A DNA stretch of 54,286 nucleotides from Nanoarchaeota archaeon (lineage in GTDB: Archaea; EX4484-52; LFW-46): contig JAHILE010000046.1 of NCBI GenBank assembly GCA_018897155.1, positions 1 through 54,286 of the forward strand. The letters run 5' to 3'. Below the pieces are notes generated by a model, which was given only the letters and a program-made list of their open reading frames with translations, did no database searches and was not told where the DNA came from. Within the stretch, counting starts at the first letter, position 1, and the number at the start of each line of letters is the position of its first letter. Position numbers and translations under genes: made by a program. This document shows positions 6,163 through 54,286 of the stretch, one piece after another.

Positions 6163-7197
6163 TCAATTTAATTTTTCTTTAAACGCATCCACAATATTCT
6201 GATTCCGGTAGTGATGCATAAAATCGGCAATTTGATTTTCATTCAGGCCTCTTCTTTTTGCTTCGGCTTCAAGCTCTCCGTAAAGCCCAAAATCAGCAAT
6301 TCCTGAAGGCGGATTCTCGCTTGATTTCTCCTCTGCTGCATGCGGCGCAAAATCGCTTGCAAGATAGACTCGATTGTATAATCCGTCATTCTTAGAAAGA
6401 TTGAACAAAAAATCAAGCAATTCTTTTTGATTTGCGCTGTCTCTTATCGGAGGATTGCATTTGTGTTTTTTGGCATCCTCAACGCTCATTAGCTTCATAT
6501 GCTCTGTTGAGCGCAGAATGTGGTGCGGCGTAAGCTCAAAACCAATGTCAAATGTGCGCGCCTTATCATTAAGCGCGGTTCGTATCAGACTGATTGTCTC
6601 TGCATGCGAAACATGGCATATCTGGAGCCTGCCTTTAAATCCGGCATTTTTTGCGAATTCAATCTGTTTTTTCACAGAATCGTATTCCGCTTTTGCAGGG
6701 CGCGCATCAGCCCATGTCCACGGTTCGCACGAGTTGAATTTGTGCTTATGCAGCTTTATTATTTCCGGATGCTCGCAGTGCACTGCAAGAACGCCGGTGT
6801 AGCCTGCGTCCGAGAGTGCGCAGTATATTCTCCCCTGTTCTGCCTCGTTTTCTACTGCCAAGTTTCCGGTTGATTCTCCTGCAAAGAGCTTTAAGCCGAC
6901 TACATTTTTGTTTTCTTTTACAATCTGCACTGCTTTTTTTATCTGCTCTAAATCAGAAGTCAGTCCGACATAAAGGCGGTAATTTTCAGAAATTCCGCGT
7001 TTTTCAGCAAGATTAATGCGCTCCTGGACTCTTTCGCGCGTGGTGACCGGCCTTGGCAGATTCGGCATATCAAAAAAAAGCCCGATGCCTGCTTTTTTGC
7101 CCTGAGCGACAACATCCGCCATTGTCGCCTTGTGCGCCCATTCCTCGTCGCGCATGTGGACGTGCGGGTCGATGTAGTATGATGGTTTCGAGTTCAT
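6163..7197 (-). CDS. pyrC: dihydroorotase
   Basis: Zinc amidohydrolase closing carbamoyl-aspartate to dihydroorotate, third step of de novo pyrimidine synthesis. Metal ligands are visible: DPHVHMRDEE with HxH at residues 12-14, KLFAGES near 113 (possible carboxylated Lys), VHCEHPE near 148, QICHVSHAET near 207, and ASDFAPHAAEEK near 287. Length 344 aa. It is the last gene of pyrD-pyrK-pyrC, with a 3-base gap after pyrK. Aspartate carbamoyltransferase and carbamoyl-phosphate synthase genes are not in this window. Confidence 0.93.
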   Translation of the reverse strand: MNSKPSYYIDPHVHMRDEEWAHKATMADVVAQGKKAGIGLFFDMPNLPRPVTTRERVQERINLAEKRGISENYRLYVGLTSDLEQIKKAVQIVKENKNVVGLKLFAGESTGNLAVENEAEQGRIYCALSDAGYTGVLAVHCEHPEIIKLHKHKFNSCEPWTWADARPAKAEYDSVKKQIEFAKNAGFKGRLQICHVSHAETISLIRTALNDKARTFDIGFELTPHHILRSTEHMKLMSVEDAKKHKCNPPIRDSANQKELLDFLFNLSKNDGLYNRVYLASDFAPHAAEEKSSENPPSGIADFGLYGELEAEAKRRGLNENQIADFMHHYRNQNIVDAFKEKLN

Positions 7198-7200
7198 AAA

Positions 7201-7986
7201 TTACGCCTTCACTCTTCTTCCTGCCTTGTCAAGTTTTTCAGTTCCAAACGCGCTTAGCTCTTTCAGTTCGCTTGACGCCATGACATTTTTCTTGCAAATT
7301 CTTACGCTTCCGCACGCGCATGAGCCGCAGATTCCGATGCCGCATTTCATATAACGCTCAAGAGAAGCCTGCATCGGCACATTGTTTTTTTCGCATATTG
7401 CAAGAAGCTTGAACATCATAATTTCAGGCCCGCATGTGTATACGCAGTCGTATTTGTTTTTTCCGAGCATTTCATCGGCGATTCCTGTTACAAATCCTTT
7501 TACTCCGGCTGAGCCGTCGTCTGTGGCTATCGATACGTTCGTTGCCTTTTCCAGCCTATCTTTGAAAAGCAATTTATCCGCTGACCTTGCCCCTAGTATC
7601 GCGTCGATTTTTATCTCCTTTTTCGCGGCGTTCTCTGCCAGAAGCGCGAGAGGGATTGTTCCCCTGCCGCCGCATACAAGCAGGATGTTTTTCCCGGTGA
7701 TTTCAAAGCCGTTTCCATACGGACCCCTTATGCCTATATGGTCGCCGATTTTTGAGTCGTATAACGCGCGAGTTCCATCTCCAACAGCTTCGACGGTTAT
7801 GCCAAAAGTGCCGTCAGAATCAGAAGTATACGATGCTGCTAGTGGAAATTCATCTACTCCTGGCACCCAGACCATGAAAAATTGTCCGGGTTGTGCTTGC
7901 GCCAATTTTTCACTCTCGAAGAAAAAGCTTCTGCAGTCTTTTGTCTCGTCAACAATCTTTTCGATTTGCAGCGTTGGGTTTTTCAT
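7201..7986 (-). CDS. pyrK: dihydroorotate dehydrogenase, electron-transfer subunit
   Basis: FAD and [2Fe-2S] subunit that passes electrons from class 1B dihydroorotate dehydrogenase to NAD+. It has an FAD-binding beta barrel (GQFFMVWVPG near residue 35, PLAASY), a nucleotide-binding domain beginning near NILLVCGGRGTIPL (100), and a C-terminal cysteine cluster CGIGICGSCACG...C near 217-233. Its start overlaps the pyrD stop by 4 bases, indicating translational coupling. Length 261 aa is typical. Confidence 0.95.
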   Translation of the reverse strand: MKNPTLQIEKIVDETKDCRSFFFESEKLAQAQPGQFFMVWVPGVDEFPLAASYTSDSDGTFGITVEAVGDGTRALYDSKIGDHIGIRGPYGNGFEITGKNILLVCGGRGTIPLALLAENAAKKEIKIDAILGARSADKLLFKDRLEKATNVSIATDDGSAGVKGFVTGIADEMLGKNKYDCVYTCGPEIMMFKLLAICEKNNVPMQASLERYMKCGIGICGSCACGSVRICKKNVMASSELKELSAFGTEKLDKAGRRVKA

Positions 7987-8894
7987 TTTAGAGCAATCCC
8001 CCGTATTTCTTCGAGATTTTTATGCCCTGAATCTTCCAGATATTTCTGTATTTCTGAGTTGATTTTTTTGAATGCTTCTAAATCATGATGCATAATCGAG
8101 GTTCCCACCCCGACAGCAGTTGCACCTGCCATTATAAACTCCAGGGCATCTTTCCCGCTGTAAATTCCTCCGGTGCCAATAATCGGCAGCGTCGTGTTTT
8201 TTGCAATTTGGTAAACTGCTCTTAATGCTATCGGTTTTATTGCAGGCCCGCTGACGCCTCCTTCTTTATTTGAGAGAACGGGCCTTCCTGTATGCACATC
8301 TATCAGCATTCCGGGCCCAACAGAATTCGAGCAGGTGATCATATCAGCGCCCGCAGCTTCCACAATTTTTGCGATTTCCGCAATCTTGAATTCTGCCGTC
8401 AGCTTGATTATCACCGGCACAGAAACATTTTTCTTGACAGCTCCGACAACGCTTCTTGCAAGTTCTCTATTATATTGAATATTCGCTCCAAGCCCCGCTT
8501 CTGCATGAGGGCATGAGAAATTGAGTTCCAGCGCATCCGCGCCGGCATCTTCACAGCATTGGGCGACTTTAATGAACTCGTCTGTGTCTTTGCCGCCGAC
8601 GCTCGCAATCAATAAAATGTTTGCCGCCTTTGCAATGCGTATCTCTTTTGCGCTTTCTTCAATACCGGGGCATGGAAGGCCGATACAATTCAAGAGGCCG
8701 TGTTCATATTCAGCCACAACAGGGCTTGTGTTCCCGTCCCTTTGCTCAAGAAATATGGTTTTTGTCGTTACTGCTCCTGCTCCGGCATTTGCGACATTTA
8801 TGAGTAATTCTCCGGTAACGCCAAGAATTCCTGATGCAAGAATAACAGGGCTCTTCAGGCGCATGTTTTTCAGCGTTACTGACATGTCGGGCAT
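7983..8894 (-). CDS. pyrD: dihydroorotate dehydrogenase, catalytic subunit (class 1B)
   Basis: FMN TIM-barrel enzyme oxidising dihydroorotate to orotate. It shows SPVILASGILG near residue 14, the active-site cysteine loop ALELNFSCPHAE near 126-137, a Lys in VIIKLTAEF near 165, and the phosphate-binding GTGGIYSGKDALEF near 240. The Cys base and the linked pyrK identify the NAD-dependent 1B class. First gene of a pyrD-pyrK-pyrC operon, with a TATA box about 23 bases before the ATG. Confidence 0.95.
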   Translation of the reverse strand: MPDMSVTLKNMRLKSPVILASGILGVTGELLINVANAGAGAVTTKTIFLEQRDGNTSPVVAEYEHGLLNCIGLPCPGIEESAKEIRIAKAANILLIASVGGKDTDEFIKVAQCCEDAGADALELNFSCPHAEAGLGANIQYNRELARSVVGAVKKNVSVPVIIKLTAEFKIAEIAKIVEAAGADMITCSNSVGPGMLIDVHTGRPVLSNKEGGVSGPAIKPIALRAVYQIAKNTTLPIIGTGGIYSGKDALEFIMAGATAVGVGTSIMHHDLEAFKKINSEIQKYLEDSGHKNLEEIRGIALK

Positions 8895-8975: not shown

Positions 8976-9605
8976 ATGACTTTAAGTGATTCCATTGAGT
9001 ATTGGATTGGAAAACTTGAGTCTTTAGACCCTTTTGAAAGAGCCTATTTTTACGTAGTTATTTTCTTAGCACTTCTCGTACCATTTATAGAATATTCTGC
9101 TATCGCTAACGTGAATCAGAAAATAGGTAATTACGAAAATCAAATAGAAAATATGAGCACCATCATTGATTATGGAATGTATCTTGATACGCTTACCGAA
9201 GTGGATAAAATGGTCTCATACAGCTTGTCTATTCAACAGGGAGAAACATCATTTGGCAACATGAGCGACGAAACAAAAGTACTTCATACGCGTGTTGAGA
9301 CCAGATATTTTGACATGTGCCGCAACCTTAATCGAGCATCTCAATATACGAACGTAACGATTAATTGCTTGAAATTATCAACTGTTGAAAGGGCACGCGA
9401 CATGACAGAATTCAATAAATTTAATCAGACGCGAATAACATTGTACACTACGCGTGGAGATTTAAAGACAAAGGTATTGGAACTAAAATCAGAGAAAGAA
9501 GATATAACAACTTTGCGTAATGTTGTGTACGTATTATTGGTCTTTTTATCTGGCTTGGGTAGTGTATTTGCGTATGCCAACGATAAAACTAATTCAAAAA
9601 AATAA
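8976..9605 (+). CDS. two-TM membrane protein of unknown function
   Basis: A 209-aa protein I do not recognise. A hydrophobic segment lies at about residues 24-44 (YFYVVIFLALLVPFIEYSA) and a second at about 178-198 (VVYVLLVFLSGLGSVFAYA). The intervening 130 residues are polar, with a possible coiled coil at 48-60 and 155-175, and probably sit outside the membrane as one loop. Lys-rich C-terminus (NDKTNSKK). It is the only plus-strand gene between pyrD and pyrE and converges on pyrE with 6 bases between stops; nothing links it to pyrimidine synthesis. Confidence 0.7.
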   Translation: MTLSDSIEYWIGKLESLDPFERAYFYVVIFLALLVPFIEYSAIANVNQKIGNYENQIENMSTIIDYGMYLDTLTEVDKMVSYSLSIQQGETSFGNMSDETKVLHTRVETRYFDMCRNLNRASQYTNVTINCLKLSTVERARDMTEFNKFNQTRITLYTTRGDLKTKVLELKSEKEDITTLRNVVYVLLVFLSGLGSVFAYANDKTNSKK

Positions 9606-9611
9606 ACTTCA

Positions 9612-10256
9612 TTACTCAAACCCCATTTTCTTTCCCCAGTCCGCAGGACTTTTATTCCACTCAAGAATTCGCGCGATTTCTTCCTGCGGTATGTAATTCA
9701 ATTTGCCTGCAACCTGGACCAATGTGCTGAAATTTGAAAGTGTGACCGGAGTGCAGTTTGCCTGTGCGAAGTTGTTTTTCGCGCGCTCCATCTCATAAGT
9801 TATTATTGCAATGGCATGAGTCACTATCCCTCCGGCTCCACGCACTGCAGAAACAGCGTCTATTATGCTGCCGCCGGTTGATATCAGGTCTTCTACAATG
9901 AGAACTTTTTGCCCGCTTTTGAGCCTGCCTTCAATAGTGTTGTTTTTCCCGTGTTCCTTTGCGCTTGACCTGATGTATATCATGGGCTTTTTCATCGCAT
10001 CTGCGATCCATGCCGCGTGGGGAATGCCGGCAGTAGCAACGCCGCCGACAACATCGAAATCGACGCCATTTTCTTTTATTGTTTGCATGAAGTATTCAAC
10101 TATTTTTTCTCTTTTGGCGACATCTGAAATTATAATCCTGTTGTCGCAGTAAATCGGGCTGAGTATGCCGGATGCAAACCTGTACGGCTTTTGCGGGCTT
10201 AAAGTGACTGCGTTTATCTCAAGCAATATTTTTGCAACATCTTCTGCGATTGTCAT
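9612..10256 (-). CDS. pyrE: orotate phosphoribosyltransferase
   Basis: Type I phosphoribosyltransferase joining orotate to PRPP to give OMP. The PRPP loop VLIVEDLISTGGSI lies near residues 108-121; the orotate-binding N-terminal part has KPYRFASGILSPIYCDNR near 23-40, and the flexible loop has IRSSAKEHGKNN near 93. Length 214 aa is usual. It lies 27 bases downstream of pyrF on the same strand, so pyrF-pyrE is a likely operon for the last two steps to UMP. Confidence 0.95.
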   Translation of the reverse strand: MTIAEDVAKILLEINAVTLSPQKPYRFASGILSPIYCDNRIIISDVAKREKIVEYFMQTIKENGVDFDVVGGVATAGIPHAAWIADAMKKPMIYIRSSAKEHGKNNTIEGRLKSGQKVLIVEDLISTGGSIIDAVSAVRGAGGIVTHAIAIITYEMERAKNNFAQANCTPVTLSNFSTLVQVAGKLNYIPQEEIARILEWNKSPADWGKKMGFE

Positions 10257-10283: not shown

Positions 10284-11105
10284 TTATGCGCGTATTCTTT
10301 TCAGATACGCATTCCATCCGGCATCCCGGTATTCTTTTGCCATTTCTTTCGGATTGCCAGAGCCGTAAATGCCGCGCCCGACAATTATCGCATCGCTTCC
10401 AGCAAGCACGGCATCCTCGGGAGTTGCGTATTTTTGCCCGAGTTTATCGCCCTTGCTTTCCAGCTGCACTCCTGGCGTAAGTATCGCATGCCCTTCAAAT
10501 GAAATGGATGAAAGTTTTTGCAGTTCGCAAGGATCGCTTCCTGTTCCGATATATCCTGCAATCGCATCCTTTTTCGTATTTGCTATCTGGACGCATTTTT
10601 TTGTATATTCTCCTTGCGCAAAAGTTCCCTCGCTTGACATCTGCGCAAGCACCAGGACTCCTCTTTCAATCCCGTCATTTTTTTCTTTTGCAACGTTCCA
10701 GATGGCATCAATTATCGCAGGGCCCGGAACAAGGTGCACATTGACAATGTGCGCCCAGTCTGCAATCTTGTACATTCCGCCGGAATACTGCATTCTTACT
10801 GTATTTCCAATGTCTGCAAACTTTCTGTCCTCGAAAATTATGAAGTTGTGCTTTTTAGAAATCGCGATAAGTTCCTGTATAACTTCAGGAGAAAAATTAT
10901 TCCATATGTCAACGTGCGTCTTAAAGACAGCAATATCTGCTCCAAGAAGTTCTGCAAGCTCAAGAATTTCGTTTGCATCAGTATGGTCTGCAGCAATCGC
11001 AAGGTTTGTTTTTTTCTTTGCCATCAGATTGAAAAGATTTCGGGCTGCCGGGTTAACCGCCATTTTAGCCCTTTCTTCGTAAGTGAGTTTCAGCTGCGAA
11101 TCCAT
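10284..11105 (-). CDS. pyrF: orotidine 5'-phosphate decarboxylase, eukaryotic (URA3) type
   Basis: Decarboxylates OMP to UMP. The active-site run FEDRKFADIGNTVRMQYS (near residues 95-112) is the signature of eukaryotic URA3/UMPS enzymes; most archaea have a DxKxxDIPxT form in a protein of about 210-230 aa. Other URA3-like landmarks follow in order: TYEERA at the N-terminus, LFNLMAKKKTNL near 25, FKTHVDI near 60, GEYTKKCVQIA near 165, LTPGVQLESKGDKLGQKY near 210-227, IIVGRGIYG near 240, and YRDAGWNAYLKR at the C-terminus. Length 273 aa also fits URA3. Acquisition from a eukaryote-like source, or an ancient shared form, is inferred. Confidence 0.93.
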   Translation of the reverse strand: MDSQLKLTYEERAKMAVNPAARNLFNLMAKKKTNLAIAADHTDANEILELAELLGADIAVFKTHVDIWNNFSPEVIQELIAISKKHNFIIFEDRKFADIGNTVRMQYSGGMYKIADWAHIVNVHLVPGPAIIDAIWNVAKEKNDGIERGVLVLAQMSSEGTFAQGEYTKKCVQIANTKKDAIAGYIGTGSDPCELQKLSSISFEGHAILTPGVQLESKGDKLGQKYATPEDAVLAGSDAIIVGRGIYGSGNPKEMAKEYRDAGWNAYLKRIRA

Positions 11106-11136
11106 TAAATTATATCTCCATGCTAAAGTTTAAATC

Positions 11137-11168
11137 TTTTCGCAAACTTCGTTTGCTCTAAGCTTTAA
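11137..11168. repeat. hairpin GCAAAC-TTC-GTTTGC upstream of prs
   Basis: CGCAAAC TTC GTTTGC stem followed by CTCTAAGCTTTAAA lies between the divergent pyrF and prs. The same GCAAAC/GTTTGC hairpin with an adjoining TTTCG arm recurs at 45.79 kb and, inverted, at 52.57 kb, so it belongs to the dispersed hairpin family described in the findings. Confidence 0.6.
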
Positions 11169-11185
11169 ATCCATTCAAAGCATGA

Positions 11186-11224
11186 ATTTAAATACATTTA
11201 AATACAACGCTGTATTGGTGTAAG
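11186..11224 (+). promoter_or_regulatory. promoter and ribosome binding site of prs
   Basis: Two overlapping ATTTAAATAC boxes (about 11187-11205) form the TATA element, the second about 26 bases before 11225. A GGTG Shine-Dalgarno core sits 5 bases before the ATG, complementary to the archaeal 16S 3' end. Confidence 0.5.
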
Positions 11225-12142
11225 ATGTTTCTAATTCCCGGTTCGAATTCGCGCGCATTGGCAGAAAAAATTTCTTCTTTGTCAAATGTACCTATGGCCA
11301 AGGCTTCGTTAAAAAAATTTCCCGACGGCGAGAATTACATACGCATTGATTCGGATTTATCAGGCCGTGATGTTTTTCTCGTTGCATCAATGTTTCCGGA
11401 CCAGAATAGCTCTCTCATGGAATTTTTGTTTTTGGCAGACGCCTGCCGTGATTGCGGCGCGAAAAAGATAACTGCGATAATTCCGTATTTTGCATACGGA
11501 AGGCAGGATAAGCAGTTCCAGAAGGGAGAAGCACTGTCACTAAAAACCCTTGCAGGACTGTTTAAGGCAGTCGGAATACAGAAGATAATTACGCTCGAGT
11601 CGCATTTTCACAGAAAGCCGGAAAATTTCGATTTTTTCGGCATTCCGGCAACAAATATTTCAGCAGGCAAGGCATTGCTTGAGGATATAAGAAAAAACAT
11701 TTGCACTGATTATATGGTAATCGGCCCGGATATTGAGTCAGGCAAGACAGTCGAGTTTGCCACAGGCAAAAAAACCGTTTTTGAAAAGGTAAAGATATGC
11801 CCTGAATGCAAAAAGCCCGCAATAGACTGCAAATGCGGCGGGGAACGCAAACGATATGAGGTAAAGGAACTTAAAAGCGAAGCCGATTTTCGCGGCAAGA
11901 ATGTTGTCATACTTGATGATATGATTGCATCCGGAAGCACAATGATTAAGGCGGCGGAAAAGGTGCGCGCGCAGGGGGCGAAAAAAGTAATCTGCGCGGC
12001 AACACATGGATTATTCATCGGAAATTCCCTCAAAGTTTTGCAGGAAAAATCGGATTATCTCATAGTCACAGACACAATAGAAACTCCAGTAAGCGCGATT
12101 TCTGTTGCGGATTTGATTGCAGAGGAGATAAAACAAAAATAA
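11225..12142 (+). CDS. prs: ribose-phosphate pyrophosphokinase with a four-cysteine insert
   Basis: Makes PRPP from ribose-5-P and ATP, feeding pyrE across the divergent promoter. Motifs: KFPDGENYIRI near residue 35, AIIPYFAYGRQDKQF near 85-99, ESHFHRKPENFDFFGIPA near 123-140, and the PRPP-binding VVILDDMIASGSTM near 228-241. Inserted ahead of that loop is a segment with C192, C195, C202 and C204 (CPECKKPAIDCKCGG), a plausible small zinc knuckle that accounts for about 20 extra residues over the usual 285. Such an insert near the catalytic flexible loop is not something I know from characterised enzymes. Confidence 0.92.
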   Translation: MFLIPGSNSRALAEKISSLSNVPMAKASLKKFPDGENYIRIDSDLSGRDVFLVASMFPDQNSSLMEFLFLADACRDCGAKKITAIIPYFAYGRQDKQFQKGEALSLKTLAGLFKAVGIQKIITLESHFHRKPENFDFFGIPATNISAGKALLEDIRKNICTDYMVIGPDIESGKTVEFATGKKTVFEKVKICPECKKPAIDCKCGGERKRYEVKELKSEADFRGKNVVILDDMIASGSTMIKAAEKVRAQGAKKVICAATHGLFIGNSLKVLQEKSDYLIVTDTIETPVSAISVADLIAEEIKQK

Positions 12143-12218
12143 TTTGTGCCGAATATGCAACCGCGCATTTTTTAAATTCACTGATTAAATAAACTACTTG
12201 GATGAATTGGTCATTTTT

Positions 12219-14798
12219 ATGGCAGAACATCACTTCAAATTTATTGAAAAAGGCAACTTGGGTTTGATCGGCCTGGGCGTAATGGGTCAAAACTTAGTGC
12301 TGAATCTGGAAAGCAGGGGATTCTCAGTTGCAGTTTATAACCGCACGGTTTCTGATACAGAAGCGTTTATCGCAGGAAAAGCAAAGGGCAAAAAAATCCT
12401 CGGCGCGAAAACGCTCGAGGAATTCGCAAAAAAGCTCGAGACTCCAAGAAAAATACTTCTTATGGTAACTGCTGGCGACCCGGTGGACGCCGTGATTAAT
12501 CAGCTTTTACTTCATCTAAGCGAAGGCGACATCGTAATCGACGGAGGAAATTCATTTTTCAAAGACACCATTCGAAGGACAAAGGCACTTGTTGAGAAAA
12601 AAATCCACTTTATAGGCATGGGAATTTCAGGAGGGGAAAAAGGCGCATTGATTGGGCCTTCTATTATGGCTGGCGGCTCGGAGTATTCCTGGAAGCACAT
12701 AAAGCCGCTCTTCGAAACAATTGCTGCCAAAGCGTTTGACGGCTCGCCGTGCTGCGCGCATATCGGAGGAGATGGTGCGGGTCACTATGTCAAGATGGTG
12801 CATAACGGCATAGAATATGCGGACATGCAATTGATCGGCGAGGCATACCAGCTGCTAAAAGAGGGCGCGGGACTGACAAATGAAGAAATGAGCGATATTT
12901 TTGCAGAATGGAATAAAGGCGAATTGAATTCTTATCTTATAGAAATCACTTCGGCAATACTGAAAAAGAAAGACGAAGAAATCGGAAAGTACATAATTGA
13001 TTTGATTCTTGATGAAGCAGGGCAGAAAGGAACCGGAAAATGGGCTTCGCAAAGCAGTTTGGATATCGGCGTTCCGGCATACAACCTGAATATGGCGGTT
13101 CTATTGAGATACATGTCCACTTCAAACAAAGAAAGAGAAAGCGCAAGCAAAATGCTGTCCGGACCAAAAATCAAAACGCGAAAAGACAAGGAAACTTTTG
13201 CAAAAGAAGTGCATGACGCGCTTTATGCATCAAAACTATGCGCTTATGCGCAGGGGTTTTCATTGATGGCTGCCGCATCCAAAGAACATGGCTGGAATCT
13301 GAATTTTCCGGAAATCGCGCGAATCTGGGAAGGCGGATGCATTATCCGGGCAGAACTTCTCGAAAATATTCGCTCTGCATTTTCCGGCAATCAGAATATT
13401 TCCAACCTGCTCTTGGATGTGCATTTCCGGGAAAAAATATCCGACCTTCAAAGCAATTGGAGAAAACTAATAGCATTTGCTGTTGAAAACGGCATACCTG
13501 CAACAGGTATCTCATCTGCTTGCGCGTATTATGACAGCTACAGATGCGCAAGGCTACCTACAAATCTTATTCAGGCGCAGAGGGATTTTTTTGGCGCACA
13601 CACTTACAAACGAATCGACAAGGAAGGGAGCTTTCACACTGAATGGGAACCAAAAGAAGGCGACGATTCTGCCAAGTATAAACTCGGAGTTGTCGGAACA
13701 GGGCACTGGGTAAGAAGGCTGCATCCGTCAATAAAAAAAAGCAACAAATTATTGCTTCATAAGGGCGCAGGCGTCACACGGTTTGAAGATAAGAAAGCAG
13801 TTCTTGATGAATACAATATAACCAAGGACAGGTATTTTCAGATTCCATCTGTTGCAGAATTGCCTTTAGAATTCTTCAAGGATTTGGATGCTGTGCAAAT
13901 TGCAAGTTATAACCAATTCCACCACGAACAGACAAAGCAATCTCTTGCGCACGGAAAAGTCACAGTGGTTGAAAAAACATTTGCAACAGAGCGAAAAGGC
14001 TTTGATGATATGATTGATTTCATAAAAAAGAACGGCCATGAGAAAAAAGTATACCCTCATCTTCATTATCTTTCAAAAGCGCTCACAAGGAGCCTGGCTG
14101 AAATATTGCCCGAAGCGCTAAAAAACTACGGAAAAATAACTTGCGCAGCGGGTACATTTGTTGAGGAAACCCGTGAGGAAGATATGCGGAGAACGTGGCT
14201 CCTTAAGCCCGAGAACGGCGGCATATTCCTGGATTGGATACATCCTGTCGAGGTTTTGGCAAAGTTTTGCGGGGCGAATTTTTTGGAATGCAAAAGCATC
14301 GAACCATACATAGTCAATCCCGCATATGATACTGTCAATCCCACAGGGCTTTGCGCGAGATTTAAAATAAGCGGCAGTGCATTTACAAAAGATGCGTTCG
14401 CAACAATAAGGGTTGGAAAAGGCTTTCCTGCAGGAGTTACATACAAGTCCTTGAGGCTGTTTTTTGAGAAAAGCGTGGTTCTTGACCTTAATTACATCTC
14501 ATCCGAAGAAGAGTTCCAGACGGGCCTAAGAGGCGCATGGGAACTTGCGGAACTTGACGGCGATAAAAAGACCGTATTAAAGAAAGGAACCCCGGAAGGG
14601 CCCCTTTCATATGATTTTTTGGTAAAAAATATGCTGAATATGATTGACGGAAAAGAGCCGCCGCTTTCAATAGATGAAATCAAGAGAATCTATGAGCCGG
14701 TGTGGCAGGTTCAGGAAGCTGCAAAGGGCCTTGTATCCATTTCAGAAAAAAAATCGGTTGAGCAGTTTATAAAAGACGCTTTGGAGAAAGCCAAGTAA
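12219..14798 (+). CDS. 6-phosphogluconate dehydrogenase fused to a Gfo/Idh/MocA oxidoreductase
   Basis: An 859-aa fusion starting at the ATG at 12219 (an upstream in-frame TTG at 12198 adds 7 residues). Residues 1-480 are a full decarboxylating 6-phosphogluconate dehydrogenase: NADP loop GLGVMG at 18-23, VSGGE-like SGGEKGALIGPSIM at 137-150, catalytic GHYVKMVHNGIEY at 188-200, and the C-terminal QAQRDFFGAHTYKRIDKEG signature. From about 488 a second Rossmann enzyme begins (GVVGTGHW 490-497), with the Gfo/Idh/MocA lysine motif as EKTFATE at 585-591 and a GGIFLDWIHPVEVL motif with H675. The second domain could be a glucose-6-P or related sugar-phosphate dehydrogenase making the substrate of the first; that is inference. 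Four bases separate it from rpiB. Confidence 0.88.
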   Translation: MAEHHFKFIEKGNLGLIGLGVMGQNLVLNLESRGFSVAVYNRTVSDTEAFIAGKAKGKKILGAKTLEEFAKKLETPRKILLMVTAGDPVDAVINQLLLHLSEGDIVIDGGNSFFKDTIRRTKALVEKKIHFIGMGISGGEKGALIGPSIMAGGSEYSWKHIKPLFETIAAKAFDGSPCCAHIGGDGAGHYVKMVHNGIEYADMQLIGEAYQLLKEGAGLTNEEMSDIFAEWNKGELNSYLIEITSAILKKKDEEIGKYIIDLILDEAGQKGTGKWASQSSLDIGVPAYNLNMAVLLRYMSTSNKERESASKMLSGPKIKTRKDKETFAKEVHDALYASKLCAYAQGFSLMAAASKEHGWNLNFPEIARIWEGGCIIRAELLENIRSAFSGNQNISNLLLDVHFREKISDLQSNWRKLIAFAVENGIPATGISSACAYYDSYRCARLPTNLIQAQRDFFGAHTYKRIDKEGSFHTEWEPKEGDDSAKYKLGVVGTGHWVRRLHPSIKKSNKLLLHKGAGVTRFEDKKAVLDEYNITKDRYFQIPSVAELPLEFFKDLDAVQIASYNQFHHEQTKQSLAHGKVTVVEKTFATERKGFDDMIDFIKKNGHEKKVYPHLHYLSKALTRSLAEILPEALKNYGKITCAAGTFVEETREEDMRRTWLLKPENGGIFLDWIHPVEVLAKFCGANFLECKSIEPYIVNPAYDTVNPTGLCARFKISGSAFTKDAFATIRVGKGFPAGVTYKSLRLFFEKSVVLDLNYISSEEEFQTGLRGAWELAELDGDKKTVLKKGTPEGPLSYDFLVKNMLNMIDGKEPPLSIDEIKRIYEPVWQVQEAAKGLVSISEKKSVEQFIKDALEKAK

Positions 14799-15854: not shown

Positions 15855-16301
15855 CTAAAACAACGTTTCCTGCATCTCTCGCGTTTTTTTCCATTGATTT
15901 CCTTTGCTGTTATCGATGTAGTTTTTTACAGCGTCTGCACTTACACTGCCAATGCTTCTGTAGAACACACCTCTGCTCCACAATCGCAGATATCTTTGTA
16001 AAGAAGGCATTTTATCTCTTATGTAATGAAAAGTACCGCCCTTTATCACAGCACATATTCTCAAAATCGACTTTCTTGGAGGGCAAGAGATAAAGAGATG
16101 CACATGGTCTGGCATCACTTCAAAAGTAAACAGGTCTATACAGTTGTTTTTGCAGACCTGTTTTATGCCTTCTTCGCACAATCTTTTCGTCGGTTCGTAT
16201 CTGAAAACCGGATATCTGGCTCTTGGTATGATGATTACATGATACCAATTTTGGCCTTTGCTGTGGCTACAGCTTTTTAAATCAGAGCTCACACGATTCA
16301 T
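15855..16301 (-). CDS. tnpA: IS200/IS605-family transposase TnpA (Y1 HUH)
   Basis: Single-strand transposase of about 148 aa. The HUH metal motif is in MPDHVHLFISCPP and the catalytic tyrosine is in AVKNYIDNSKGNQW near the C-terminus. I chose the ATG at 16301, preceded by GAGGTG six bases upstream; the open frame extends nine codons further. No TnpB is adjacent, so this is a solo IS200-like copy. Upstream are a 14-bp palindrome (GTATGAGCTCATAC, 16342-16355) and a GGCGCC-TTC-GGCGCC hairpin (16414-16428). The frame is intact. Confidence 0.9.
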   Translation of the reverse strand: MNRVSSDLKSCSHSKGQNWYHVIIIPRARYPVFRYEPTKRLCEEGIKQVCKNNCIDLFTFEVMPDHVHLFISCPPRKSILRICAVIKGGTFHYIRDKMPSLQRYLRLWSRGVFYRSIGSVSADAVKNYIDNSKGNQWKKTREMQETLF

Positions 16302-16341
16302 TTGTAACACCTCATATGCGTTTTTCACTGTTGGAAAACGT

Positions 16342-30190: not shown

Positions 30191-31705
30191 TTAAATACAA
30201 AGATCATTAGCAGCCACAAAAATTGTGCCTGAGGAAAGCTTTAGTTTACTTCTCTTTTGTAATATTGTGTAAATTCTTCTCAAATTTGATGCGGCACATA
30301 CGAGATTGAACTCATTTTTTACTGTTTCAAGATGCCTTGTAAGAAATGCACGAAATCCTTTGTTTTCTTTGATATCGCCGAAAACAGGTTCAACTGTTTC
30401 CGCACGCAGTTTGTATGTTTCTTTTGCATTTTGAGTTTTTATTTTGTCGTCCATTGCTTTGCGTTCTTTTTCAAAAGGAAAAACTTTTATGCGTCGAATG
30501 CCCTTTTTTGATTTGGTGCAATTTTGTTGGCATAAACACGTTTTGCACGATTGCCCTTTATAAAGCCTCACTCTTTTCTTTTTGCTTTTATCGAATTGTT
30601 CGCCAGTGAATGTTAGAGAATTGTTTGTAGGACAGGTGAAAGCGTCTTTTTCTGCATCGTAAATAAAATGTTTTTTATCAAAAGGATTATCGGTTTTATT
30701 CAAATTGTCTGGAATATATCCGTTAATTTTTTTATCTGAAAGAAATTTTATGTTTCCGCTTTCATAAAAACCTTTGTCAAAACTCCACGGAACATTTGGC
30801 AATGTTCCTAGATTTTCTTCAGTCATATTGACTTGCGGCTGAAGCTGATATAGGTCATTAGGATCTTGACAAACATCGTTTGCCAGAATAATGCCGTTTT
30901 TGCCAACAGTTATTTGAACATTGTAGGATAATTCAATTTTTCCTTTTTTGTTTTTCATGAAACGGCTGTCGCCATCAGTTAGGCTGATTTTTTCTAAATT
31001 TTTATCTTTCAATTCTTTTTTTGCATCGTTTATCTTTTCGTTTATCGTCTGCTTAAATTCAATGCCTAAGCATTTTGTTTCTTTAATATAACGCTTAACA
31101 GTGGCTTTGATTCTTTTCTTGCTACTGTTCGGCAATTGGTCGAAACCTCTAAGATTCTCAAATTTTTTATCTTCTATTTGATCCTGTTTTGTCCATTCTT
31201 CAAGTTCATTGTTGATAAATGTATCCAAAATATCCAACTCCTGTTTTGTAAGAACTTTTTTGTTGGATGCATTTGCTTTTACCTTACTTCCGTCAGTTGA
31301 AAGATGGCTCAAATCAAGCGCTCCTTCTTCTTTTGCAAGAATTAATGTGTGTTTAAAGACAATTTTTAATAATTCGGGATTATTTTTTCGAAAATCGCTT
31401 ATTGTTCTGAAGTCGGGTGATAGCTTTTCTGACAAATAAATGTATATAATATTTTCTCTTGCATTTTTTGCAAGCATTCTTGAAGAACGCACTTTATCAA
31501 GAATACCCATAACCAATATTTTCAATAATATTCTTGGATGATATGCTGGATGTCCAACACCAGCATATTTCTTCATAAAAAAAGAAAAATCAAGTGACTC
31601 TACAAGTGATTCTGCAAGAAAACAAACATGATCTTTGGGAATCATATCTTCAATTCTTGGCGGCAAAAGCCAATTTTGCGATTTGAACGATTTGATGAAA
31701 GCCAT
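30191..31705 (-). CDS. IS1182-type DDE transposase
   Basis: A 504-aa transposase starting at the ATG at 31705, which overlaps the stop of the small upstream frame (TAATG). N-terminal DUF772-like domain: LLPPRIEDMIPKDHVCFLAE, YHPRILLKILVMGILDKVRSSR, ISDFRKNN. The DDE core includes LSTDGSKVKANAS (first Asp, near residue 140) and SFDKGFYESGNIKF (second Asp), with a cysteine-rich segment CKTCLCQQNC near 390 and the C-terminal AETVEPVFGDIKENKGFRAF carrying the Glu. This matches IS1182/IS5-like group enzymes. Confidence 0.93.
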   Translation of the reverse strand: MAFIKSFKSQNWLLPPRIEDMIPKDHVCFLAESLVESLDFSFFMKKYAGVGHPAYHPRILLKILVMGILDKVRSSRMLAKNARENIIYIYLSEKLSPDFRTISDFRKNNPELLKIVFKHTLILAKEEGALDLSHLSTDGSKVKANASNKKVLTKQELDILDTFINNELEEWTKQDQIEDKKFENLRGFDQLPNSSKKRIKATVKRYIKETKCLGIEFKQTINEKINDAKKELKDKNLEKISLTDGDSRFMKNKKGKIELSYNVQITVGKNGIILANDVCQDPNDLYQLQPQVNMTEENLGTLPNVPWSFDKGFYESGNIKFLSDKKINGYIPDNLNKTDNPFDKKHFIYDAEKDAFTCPTNNSLTFTGEQFDKSKKKRVRLYKGQSCKTCLCQQNCTKSKKGIRRIKVFPFEKERKAMDDKIKTQNAKETYKLRAETVEPVFGDIKENKGFRAFLTRHLETVKNEFNLVCAASNLRRIYTILQKRSKLKLSSGTIFVAANDLCI

Positions 31706-31848
31706 TAGCAATCCCCTTTCTTTTTGTTTTTTGGCTTAACCGCTTCCAAGTATTTGCTTTTATGAAATACTTTGTTCCCTAAACGATAACTTGTTCGCTC
31801 ATAGCGATATTTTCTCCCATTTATTGATTTTATTTCGAGATAAGTCAT
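31705..31848 (-). CDS. 47-aa protein translationally coupled to the IS transposase
   Basis: A short frame (MTYLEIKSINGRKYRYERTS, ending KNKKKGDC) with a GAGGTG Shine-Dalgarno 5 bases before its ATG; its TAA overlaps the transposase ATG. Basic, with a beta-like YLEIKSINGRKYRYE pattern. It lies within the IS inverted repeats, so it belongs to the element; it may act as a DNA-binding or leader peptide. Function unknown. Confidence 0.65.
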   Translation of the reverse strand: MTYLEIKSINGRKYRYERTSYRLGNKVFHKSKYLEAVKPKNKKKGDC

Positions 31849-53070: not shown

Positions 53071-54286
53071 TTAATTTTCTCTTTTCATTTTTATCAAAGC
53101 AAGATTACTTTCACACTTGCTTATAATTGCCCTCAAACTTTGTCCTTCCATTTCTTTGTAAATGTCCTGAGGCAATAAAATATACTTCCACTGCTTCGGC
53201 TGTATTATTGGCTCCGGAGGAGTTGTTTTTATCTTTGAGAATTCCCTGCACTTTTGTTCTGCGGCAATTGCTTTGCTTTTTACGTCAATATCATTCTGAG
53301 CGTCTTTTTCAGATTTTGTTTCCACAATTAACATGAACTCTTTTGTTTTTACTATGAAATCCGGATAATATGGCACAGGATAACCTCTGCTATTCAAGTA
53401 GGTTATAGAAAAACCGTGCAAATATTGATTTAACTTTACATATGAGTCTACCATTGAATCGTTATCGAGCTGATCTTCGGTAAATTGCCTTTCAAATCCG
53501 CCCTTATATGGAAAATCGATGAACGGATAAAGGCATTTTTTGGTCGTTATTGAGCGTTCCATCCGGACTTTCATTTCTTTGAAATTCGATAATTTGGCCC
53601 ATTGCGCTTCAACCACGTCATTTGATTTTATGTTTTCTATAAACTTCATAATTTGCCGCCTAACTTCCGTAACGACAAAATCAAATAATTGCTGGTTTCT
53701 CAAACGCATTACATTGCTTTTATCTTCAAAATCGATTTGTCTTCCAAAAAGAAAGCCTGAAATATACTGATCGACTACGCCTGCCAATTCTGCCGAATAG
53801 CGCGACAGCCAAACGTTTCTTTTGCTTGTCCCGATTATGCTTTTCACAACATTTCTCAGAAATACGCTGTATGAAAAGTTGACCTCTTCAAGTTCCCAGT
53901 CTTGCTTGAACTTGGTATCTGGGTGGAAATCAGTAATGATTATTTTTGTCGGCTCTATCTGCTCCAATGGCTCAGGGTATGCAGGAAGCTCCGCTATATT
54001 GAAATATTGAAAGTTTATTTCCTCTTCTGTCCTATATGATAGATTTGCTGGCCACGCAAGATCCATGTCTTTGATCCTGTTCGGATCTATTGAAATGAGT
54101 ATGCTTTTTGAATCAAGGCTTATTTCAATAGAACTGCCGCTCGCGATAATCGCTCCTGCCTGCTTTAATTGATTGTATATTTCATTATATTTTGGATGCT
54201 CGACAATGAAAAGCAAATCATATGAGTTAATTAGCTCCTGCCCGTTTTCCATTCTTTGAAAATTATCTATTTTTTCAGGCGCATAT
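53071..54286 (-). CDS. C-terminal part of a probable type III restriction (Res) subunit, cut by the window
   Basis: The minus-strand frame stays open to the right edge (reading AYAPEKIDNFQR before the first ATG at 54252), so the start lies outside. About 405 codons are visible. The last third has a PD-(D/E)xK nuclease pattern: YYPDFIVKTKEFMLIVETKSEKD, followed by a helix with KSKAIAAEQKCREFS and a closing WKYILLPQDI, as in type III Res and related helicase-nucleases. The helicase domain would be upstream, off the window. It faces the hairpin field at its 3' end. Confidence 0.6.
   Translation of the reverse strand, partial: YAPEKIDNFQRMENGQELINSYDLLFIVEHPKYNEIYNQLKQAGAIIASGSSIEISLDSKSILISIDPNRIKDMDLAWPANLSYRTEEEINFQYFNIAELPAYPEPLEQIEPTKIIITDFHPDTKFKQDWELEEVNFSYSVFLRNVVKSIIGTSKRNVWLSRYSAELAGVVDQYISGFLFGRQIDFEDKSNVMRLRNQQLFDFVVTEVRRQIMKFIENIKSNDVVEAQWAKLSNFKEMKVRMERSITTKKCLYPFIDFPYKGGFERQFTEDQLDNDSMVDSYVKLNQYLHGFSITYLNSRGYPVPYYPDFIVKTKEFMLIVETKSEKDAQNDIDVKSKAIAAEQKCREFSKIKTTPPEPIIQPKQWKYILLPQDIYKEMEGQSLRAIISKCESNLALIKMKREN

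What the first reader, a model, noticed from the sequence alone, without database searches (positions are those of the whole stretch)
10284..11105. Eukaryote-type URA3-like OMP decarboxylase in an archaeal pyr cluster
The active-site run FEDRKFADIGNTV, the TPGVxLxxKGDxLGQxY stretch and the RxAGWxAYLxR end match fungal/animal OMPDC from my memory of yeast URA3, far better than the short DxKxxDIPxT archaeal form. It is next to a normal pyrE. Either a transfer from a eukaryote-like donor or retention of an ancient long form.
Basis: partly seen in the sequence, partly recalled or inferred. Interest (0 to 1): 0.6.

Follow-up and report, generated by a model that had tools for sequence, protein, structure and literature searches.

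The report
URA3-type OMP decarboxylase in DPANN archaeon
A small-genome archaeon makes its last pyrimidine-synthesis enzyme from a gene of the yeast/human type, but its nearest relatives are in other DPANN archaea and Patescibacteria, so it is a rare member of a widespread prokaryotic family and not a gene taken from a eukaryote.

Summary
The 273-aa ORF at 10284-11105 (-) is an orotidine-5'-phosphate decarboxylase of the yeast URA3 / human UMPS type with intact catalytic residues. It is the genome's only OMPDC, lies 27 bp upstream of pyrE in a pyr cluster, and sits on an archaeal contig. Its best solved relatives are Coffea, yeast and human OMPDC (E 4e-74 to 6e-67, 45-48% identity); archaeal and bacterial OMPDCs reach only 1e-10 or weaker.

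The "eukaryotic" label misleads. A genome scan found 297 prokaryotic relatives; the best 80 include Micrarchaeota, Woesearchaeota, Patescibacteria, Chlamydiota and intracellular Gammaproteobacteria. In trees the window protein joins Micrarchaeota within a DPANN+Patescibacteria clade (100/97 and 96/89). Eukaryotes fall elsewhere, and grouping them with the window is rejected or nearly so (AU p 2e-6 to 0.051). A eukaryotic donor is not supported; patchy acquisition within the DPANN/Patescibacteria gene pool fits best (2 of 394 sampled archaeal genomes have the type).

By-product: many Chlamydiota, Patescibacteria and Gammaproteobacteria carry a pyrE-pyrF pair, sometimes fused, whose halves both resemble human UMPS. 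That bears on where eukaryotic UMPS came from, but the root is unresolved.

The parts
10284..11105 (-). pyrF, URA3/UMPS-type OMP decarboxylase, 273 aa
   Evidence: TIGR01740 199.9 bits, PDB, AlphaFold/Foldseek, active-site map
9612..10256 (-). pyrE, orotate phosphoribosyltransferase of bacterial (not UMPS) type
   Evidence: TIGR00336 138.9 bits, over its cut-off; PDB 3dez 4e-57 vs human OPRT 1e-19
7983..8894 (-). pyrD, dihydroorotate dehydrogenase class 1B
   Evidence: NF005574 312.5 bits, over its cut-off
7201..7986 (-). pyrK, dihydroorotate dehydrogenase electron transfer subunit
   Evidence: NF000796 285.1 bits, over its cut-off
6163..7197 (-). dihydroorotase-like gene (pyrC candidate)
   Evidence: NCBIfam dihydroorotase models up to 113.9 bits, all below cut-off; no Pfam match
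8976..9605 (+). unknown protein with hydrophobic ends, opposite strand, inside the pyr cluster
   Evidence: no family match
11106..11224 (.). divergent pyrF/prs intergenic gap with four TTTAAA elements (11129-11202), candidate archaeal promoters
   Evidence: pattern search and sequence; function inferred
11225..12142 (+). prs, ribose-phosphate diphosphokinase (makes PRPP, the PyrE substrate)
   Evidence: TIGR01251 253.4 bits, over its cut-off

Best explanation
This is a working OMP decarboxylase that turns OMP into UMP, the last step of de novo UMP synthesis, by the standard metal-free mechanism with the Lys/Asp charged network. It belongs to a URA3/UMPS-type subfamily that is widespread but patchy in prokaryotes, mainly in DPANN archaea, Patescibacteria, Chlamydiota and protist-associated Gammaproteobacteria. 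Eukaryotic URA3/UMPS are other members of the same subfamily. The window lineage most likely got the gene by horizontal transfer within the DPANN/Patescibacteria pool, independently of its present pyrE partner, and not from a eukaryote. Shown: subfamily, intact active site, sole OMPDC of the genome, pyr-cluster position, tree position. Inferred: catalytic activity, horizontal origin and its direction.
For: The yeast active-site positions (D37, K59, D91, K93, D96, T100, S154, Q215, Y217, R235 and others) are all identical. Sequence and fold are closest to human, Coffea and yeast OMPDC. The genome scan found 297 prokaryotic relatives, nearest 58% identity in Micrarchaeota. Trees: window + L019 97/92, 8 DPANN rows 100/97, 28 DPANN+Patescibacteria rows 96/89; the sister pair and the 8-row clade hold with 104 rows (96/94 and 97/94). 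AU tests reject or nearly reject window+eukaryotes. Sampled counts: archaea 2/394, Micrarchaeota 3/196, phylum of a Woesearchaeota locus 2/279, Patescibacteria 13/333, Chlamydiota 39/151. In the window's order 2 of 34 genomes have this type, G006 has a bacterial-type PyrF, and others have other OMPdecase-fold genes or none.
Against: Backbone support is modest and one AU test was only marginal (p 0.051). The same-genus genome G001 (89% complete) lacks DHODH, ATCase/OTCase and OMPDC, so loss in the sister explains the patchiness there as well as gain does. A single clade of all DPANN members is not rejected (p 0.33), so one old DPANN acquisition or vertical retention remains possible. GC by codon position is like the neighbours', so there is no compositional trace of transfer.
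Confidence: 0.82

Rival explanations
1. The gene came from a eukaryote (or a eukaryote-like donor) into this archaeon or its recent ancestors, as the first reader first suggested.
For: High similarity to yeast, human and Coffea OMPDC; canonical archaeal PyrF is far off.
Against: The window groups with Micrarchaeota and Patescibacteria at 52-58% identity, above its 48-50% to eukaryotes. AU p 2.4e-6 and 1.7e-4, 0.042 and 0.040, 0.051.
Confidence: 0.05
2. Retention of an ancient long OMPDC form inherited vertically in DPANN and lost in most archaea.
For: A single clade of DPANN members is not rejected (p 0.33). Loss of the whole pathway is seen in the same-genus genome. PMC12892359 infers PyrF in the DPANN ancestor, though with several origins in Micrarchaeota.
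Against: 2 of 394 archaeal genomes, 3/196 and 2/279 in two DPANN phyla; Patescibacteria are interleaved with DPANN in the tree; other members of the order carry bacterial-type PyrF or other forms.
Confidence: 0.12
3. The URA3-type family as a whole began in eukaryotes and passed long ago to protist-associated bacteria, then to Patescibacteria and DPANN; the window gene is a distant descendant of that.
For: Many members are intracellular or host-associated bacteria; the root is unresolved, with fungi near it.
Against: The prokaryotic diversity is at least as deep as the eukaryotic, and human and Coffea sequences sit among Chlamydiota in the trees.
Confidence: 0.15

Closest known systems
Eukaryotic OMPDC: yeast URA3 and the C-terminal domain of UMP synthase (human, Coffea)
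   Same: Same subfamily: 45-50% identity end to end, same catalytic and gripper-loop residues, TM about 0.9.
   Different: Stand-alone, with a short insert near residues 189-205; the neighbouring PyrE is not of UMPS type; branches with DPANN/Patescibacteria.
URA3-type PyrF of Micrarchaeota (L019, L020, L022, L023) and of MAG AB_03_Bin_104 (L003/L024)
   Same: Closest relatives, 52-58% identity, 8-row clade 100/97.
   Different: Different DPANN lineages with different pyr neighbourhoods; the sister locus L019 has another pyrE type.
Canonical archaeal PyrF (NF010386; Methanothermobacter, Pyrococcus structures)
   Same: Same superfamily and catalytic DxKxxD core.
   Different: About 25% identity, shorter; the window protein is below the family cut-off.
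Bacterial UMPS-like pyrE-pyrF pairs and fusions (Chlamydiota, Magasanikbacteria, Parcubacteria, Saprospira plasmids)
   Same: Same OMPDC subfamily.
   Different: Their OPRT is human-like (L049 to 2wns 1.6e-58; 43-58% identity at most clade-B loci); the window's is not.

Membership tests
Orotidine-5'-phosphate decarboxylase (PyrF; PF00215, TIGR01740) | Score over the curated cut-off | tested here: met
   TIGR01740 199.9 vs 92.3; PF00215 198.4 vs 27
Orotidine-5'-phosphate decarboxylase (PyrF; PF00215, TIGR01740) | Catalytic Lys/Asp network and phosphate-gripper residues | tested here: met
   All 14 checked yeast positions identical
Orotidine-5'-phosphate decarboxylase (PyrF; PF00215, TIGR01740) | Decarboxylates OMP | not testable with these tools
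   Needs an enzyme assay or complementation
URA3/UMPS-type OMPDC subfamily | Groups with yeast, human and plant OMPDC apart from canonical archaeal/bacterial PyrF | tested here: met
   Outgroup-rooted tree: all 100 rows on one side, SH-aLRT 94, long outgroup branches; PDB E-values
Eukaryotic OMPDC clade (eukaryote-derived gene) | Forms a clade with eukaryotic sequences | tested here: not met
   marginal (p 0.051)
UMP synthase (bifunctional OPRT-OMPDC) | Fused to, or paired with, a UMPS-type OPRT | tested here: not met
   Separate ORFs; PyrE is not human-like
Canonical archaeal PyrF (NF010386) | Score over the curated cut-off of 208 bits | tested here: not met
   89.4 bits

The most novel reading that the evidence does not exclude
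The 'eukaryotic' OMPDC, and the whole OPRT-OMPDC pair that became UMPS, is originally a prokaryotic pyrEF pair of host-associated bacteria (Chlamydiota, Patescibacteria and others). Eukaryotes took it up, and the DPANN/Patescibacteria form seen in the window is a separate deep branch of that same prokaryotic family.
Probability: 0.3. Interest if true: 0.6.

Novelty: new member of a known kind. Interest (0 to 1): 0.35.

Why it matters
It shows that 'URA3-like' is not a eukaryotic mark: the type is spread thinly across small-genome and host-associated prokaryotes. The related bacterial pyrE-pyrF pairs, some fused in the same order as human UMPS, give a concrete route to test where eukaryotic UMP synthase came from. 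It is also a caution against calling eukaryote-to-archaea transfers from motif resemblance alone.

Tried and rejected
Viral donor: no relative in viral contigs; in phages only a 26% match annotated pyrF. Contaminant contig: rejected by archaeal genes along the window. Hidden second OMPDC: none in the genome. Compositional sign of recent transfer: none. A rooted direction: the outgroup branches are long and the root is a near three-way split of fungi, clade A and clade B. Literature: seven searches found no held paper on URA3-type PyrF in DPANN or Patescibacteria, only multiple PyrF origins in Micrarchaeota (PMC12892359); most subscription papers, including Nara et al. 2000 on mosaic pyrimidine pathways (cited in PMC7052976), are not held. 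Using loci as search centres failed and was solved through genome handles. The S. pombe and Candida sequences in the trees were written from memory, yeast/human/Coffea were taken from PDB alignments; with the two memory sequences and four long rows left out, one AU test weakened to p 0.051.

Full report
Observation. TIGR01740 pyrF matches at 199.9 bits, over its cut-off; the bacterial and archaeal equivalog models fall far below theirs. The best PDB matches are eukaryotic, ahead of the best non-eukaryotic chain by more than 50 orders of magnitude in E-value, and the AlphaFold model agrees (pLDDT 95.5; TM about 0.9 to human and Coffea OMPDC, 0.67 to Pyrococcus). All 14 yeast active-site or phosphate-gripper positions checked are identical. 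It is the only OMPDC of the genome.

Setting. Downstream on the same strand lie pyrE (27 bp away), pyrD, pyrK and a dihydroorotase-like gene; an opposite-strand ORF of unknown function with hydrophobic ends sits between pyrE and pyrD. Upstream, divergently, lie prs, a 6-phosphogluconate dehydrogenase fusion and rpiB. Genes that make ribose-5-phosphate and PRPP thus flank genes that use PRPP to make UMP. One aspartate/ornithine transcarbamoylase-type gene lies elsewhere in the genome. The contig is archaeal (MCM, SecY, S4e, L3 and more). Four TTTAAA elements in the 119-bp pyrF/prs gap are candidate archaeal promoters (inference).

Relatives. One genome-collection scan gave 297 prokaryotic relatives. 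The 80 best come from Micrarchaeota, Woesearchaeota, a MAG labelled Nanohalarchaeota, many Patescibacteria, Chlamydiota, Gammaproteobacteria (including Piscirickettsia and Rickettsiella), Babeliales and others. Saprospira plasmids carry a fused OPRT-OMPDC. Sampling gave 2/394 archaeal genomes, 3/196 in the phylum of a Micrarchaeota locus, 2/279 in that of a Woesearchaeota locus, 13/333 Patescibacteria and 39/151 in the phylum of a Chlamydiota locus. The samples include the genome used as their centre (the window's own genome), and some other genomes first found through the scan, so those rates are slightly inflated. Each of 13 carrier genomes checked has just one strong OMPDC match.

Trees. 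With 88 rows the window is sister to a Micrarchaeota protein (97/92), inside an 8-row DPANN clade (100/97), inside a 28-row DPANN+Patescibacteria clade (96/89); eukaryotes are elsewhere. With 104 rows the first two groupings hold (96/94, 97/94), and a second large group holds Chlamydiota, Gammaproteobacteria, other Patescibacteria and the eukaryotes (94/83). AU tests: eukaryotes+window p 2.4e-6 and eukaryotes+8 DPANN p 1.7e-4 (88 rows); 0.042 and 0.040 (104 rows); 0.051 with three PDB eukaryotes only. Eukaryote monophyly is not rejected (p 0.225). Rooting with canonical PyrF puts all 100 URA3-type rows on one side but leaves a near three-way root.

What it means. A eukaryotic donor for this gene is not supported. 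The gene belongs to a prokaryotic branch of a subfamily that eukaryotes share. Horizontal spread is inferred from patchiness and from mixed archaeal and bacterial neighbours in the tree. In the window's own order G006 uses a bacterial-type PyrF, and the same-genus genome G001 (89% complete) lacks OMPDC, DHODH and ATCase/OTCase. The pyrE partner is not fixed. The window's PyrE is bacterial type and is shared at 38-57% identity by eight scanned loci, seven of them in the DPANN+Patescibacteria clade, while the sister locus L019 has another type.

Beyond the window. In the other large clade the neighbouring pyrE is 43-58% identical to the human OPRT domain at 37 of the 38 loci whose pyrE scored nearer to human than to the window's. 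Fused OPRT-OMPDC proteins occur in Magasanikbacteria, Parcubacteria, a genome of the Chlamydiota-locus phylum, Saprospira and one genome of the Woesearchaeota-locus phylum; the Magasanikbacteria OPRT half matches human OPRT at 1.6e-58. The Coffea OMPDC is as close to a Chlamydiota protein (63.4%) as to human OMPDC (62.7%). The UMPS pair is therefore not a eukaryote-only assembly. Direction of transfer is open because the root is unresolved.

Verdict. A correct and slightly unusual annotation with an over-read origin. New member of a known kind; interest moderate, mainly for the wider family.

Noticed in passing
window 12198-14798 (+): One 866-aa ORF fuses 6-phosphogluconate dehydrogenase (residues 18-487) to a Gfo/Idh/MocA oxidoreductase. 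Among 394 archaeal genomes searched only the window shows the fusion; G392 has the two as separate nearby genes, and G228, G226 and G106 have similar Gnd and Gfo/Idh genes side by side. Possibly a stand-in for glucose-6-phosphate dehydrogenase, next to prs and rpiB.
   Followed up: partly
L114 1-2136 and like ORFs in G017, G020, G023, G027, G032: Relatives in the same order carry about 1000-aa proteins with OMPdecase-fold domains. The one read (L114, from G033) joins aldehyde:ferredoxin oxidoreductase (AFOR_C, 402 bits) to two hexulose-6-phosphate-synthase-like domains; this could couple formaldehyde oxidation and fixation.
   Followed up: partly
L017, L018, L049, L067, L124, L126, L165: Fused OPRT-OMPDC (UMPS-like) proteins in Saprospira plasmids, Patescibacteria, the Chlamydiota-locus phylum and a genome of the Woesearchaeota-locus phylum, in the same domain order as human UMPS.
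   Followed up: partly
L018 676-2178: The Saprospira grandis Lewin plasmid holds the full UMPS-like gene plus a second, partial OMPDC stretch overlapping a KilA-N gene.
   Followed up: no
window 6163-7197 (-): Dihydroorotase-like protein of 344 aa that starts close to the HVHMRD metal motif, scores below every NCBIfam dihydroorotase cut-off and has no Pfam match.
   Followed up: no
window 15855-16328 (-) and 30191-31711 (-): An IS200/IS605-type and a DDE transposase on the contig.
   Followed up: no
window 53071-54252 (-): 393-aa ORF with a weak TnsA-like endonuclease match, beside the ribosomal protein cluster.
   Followed up: no
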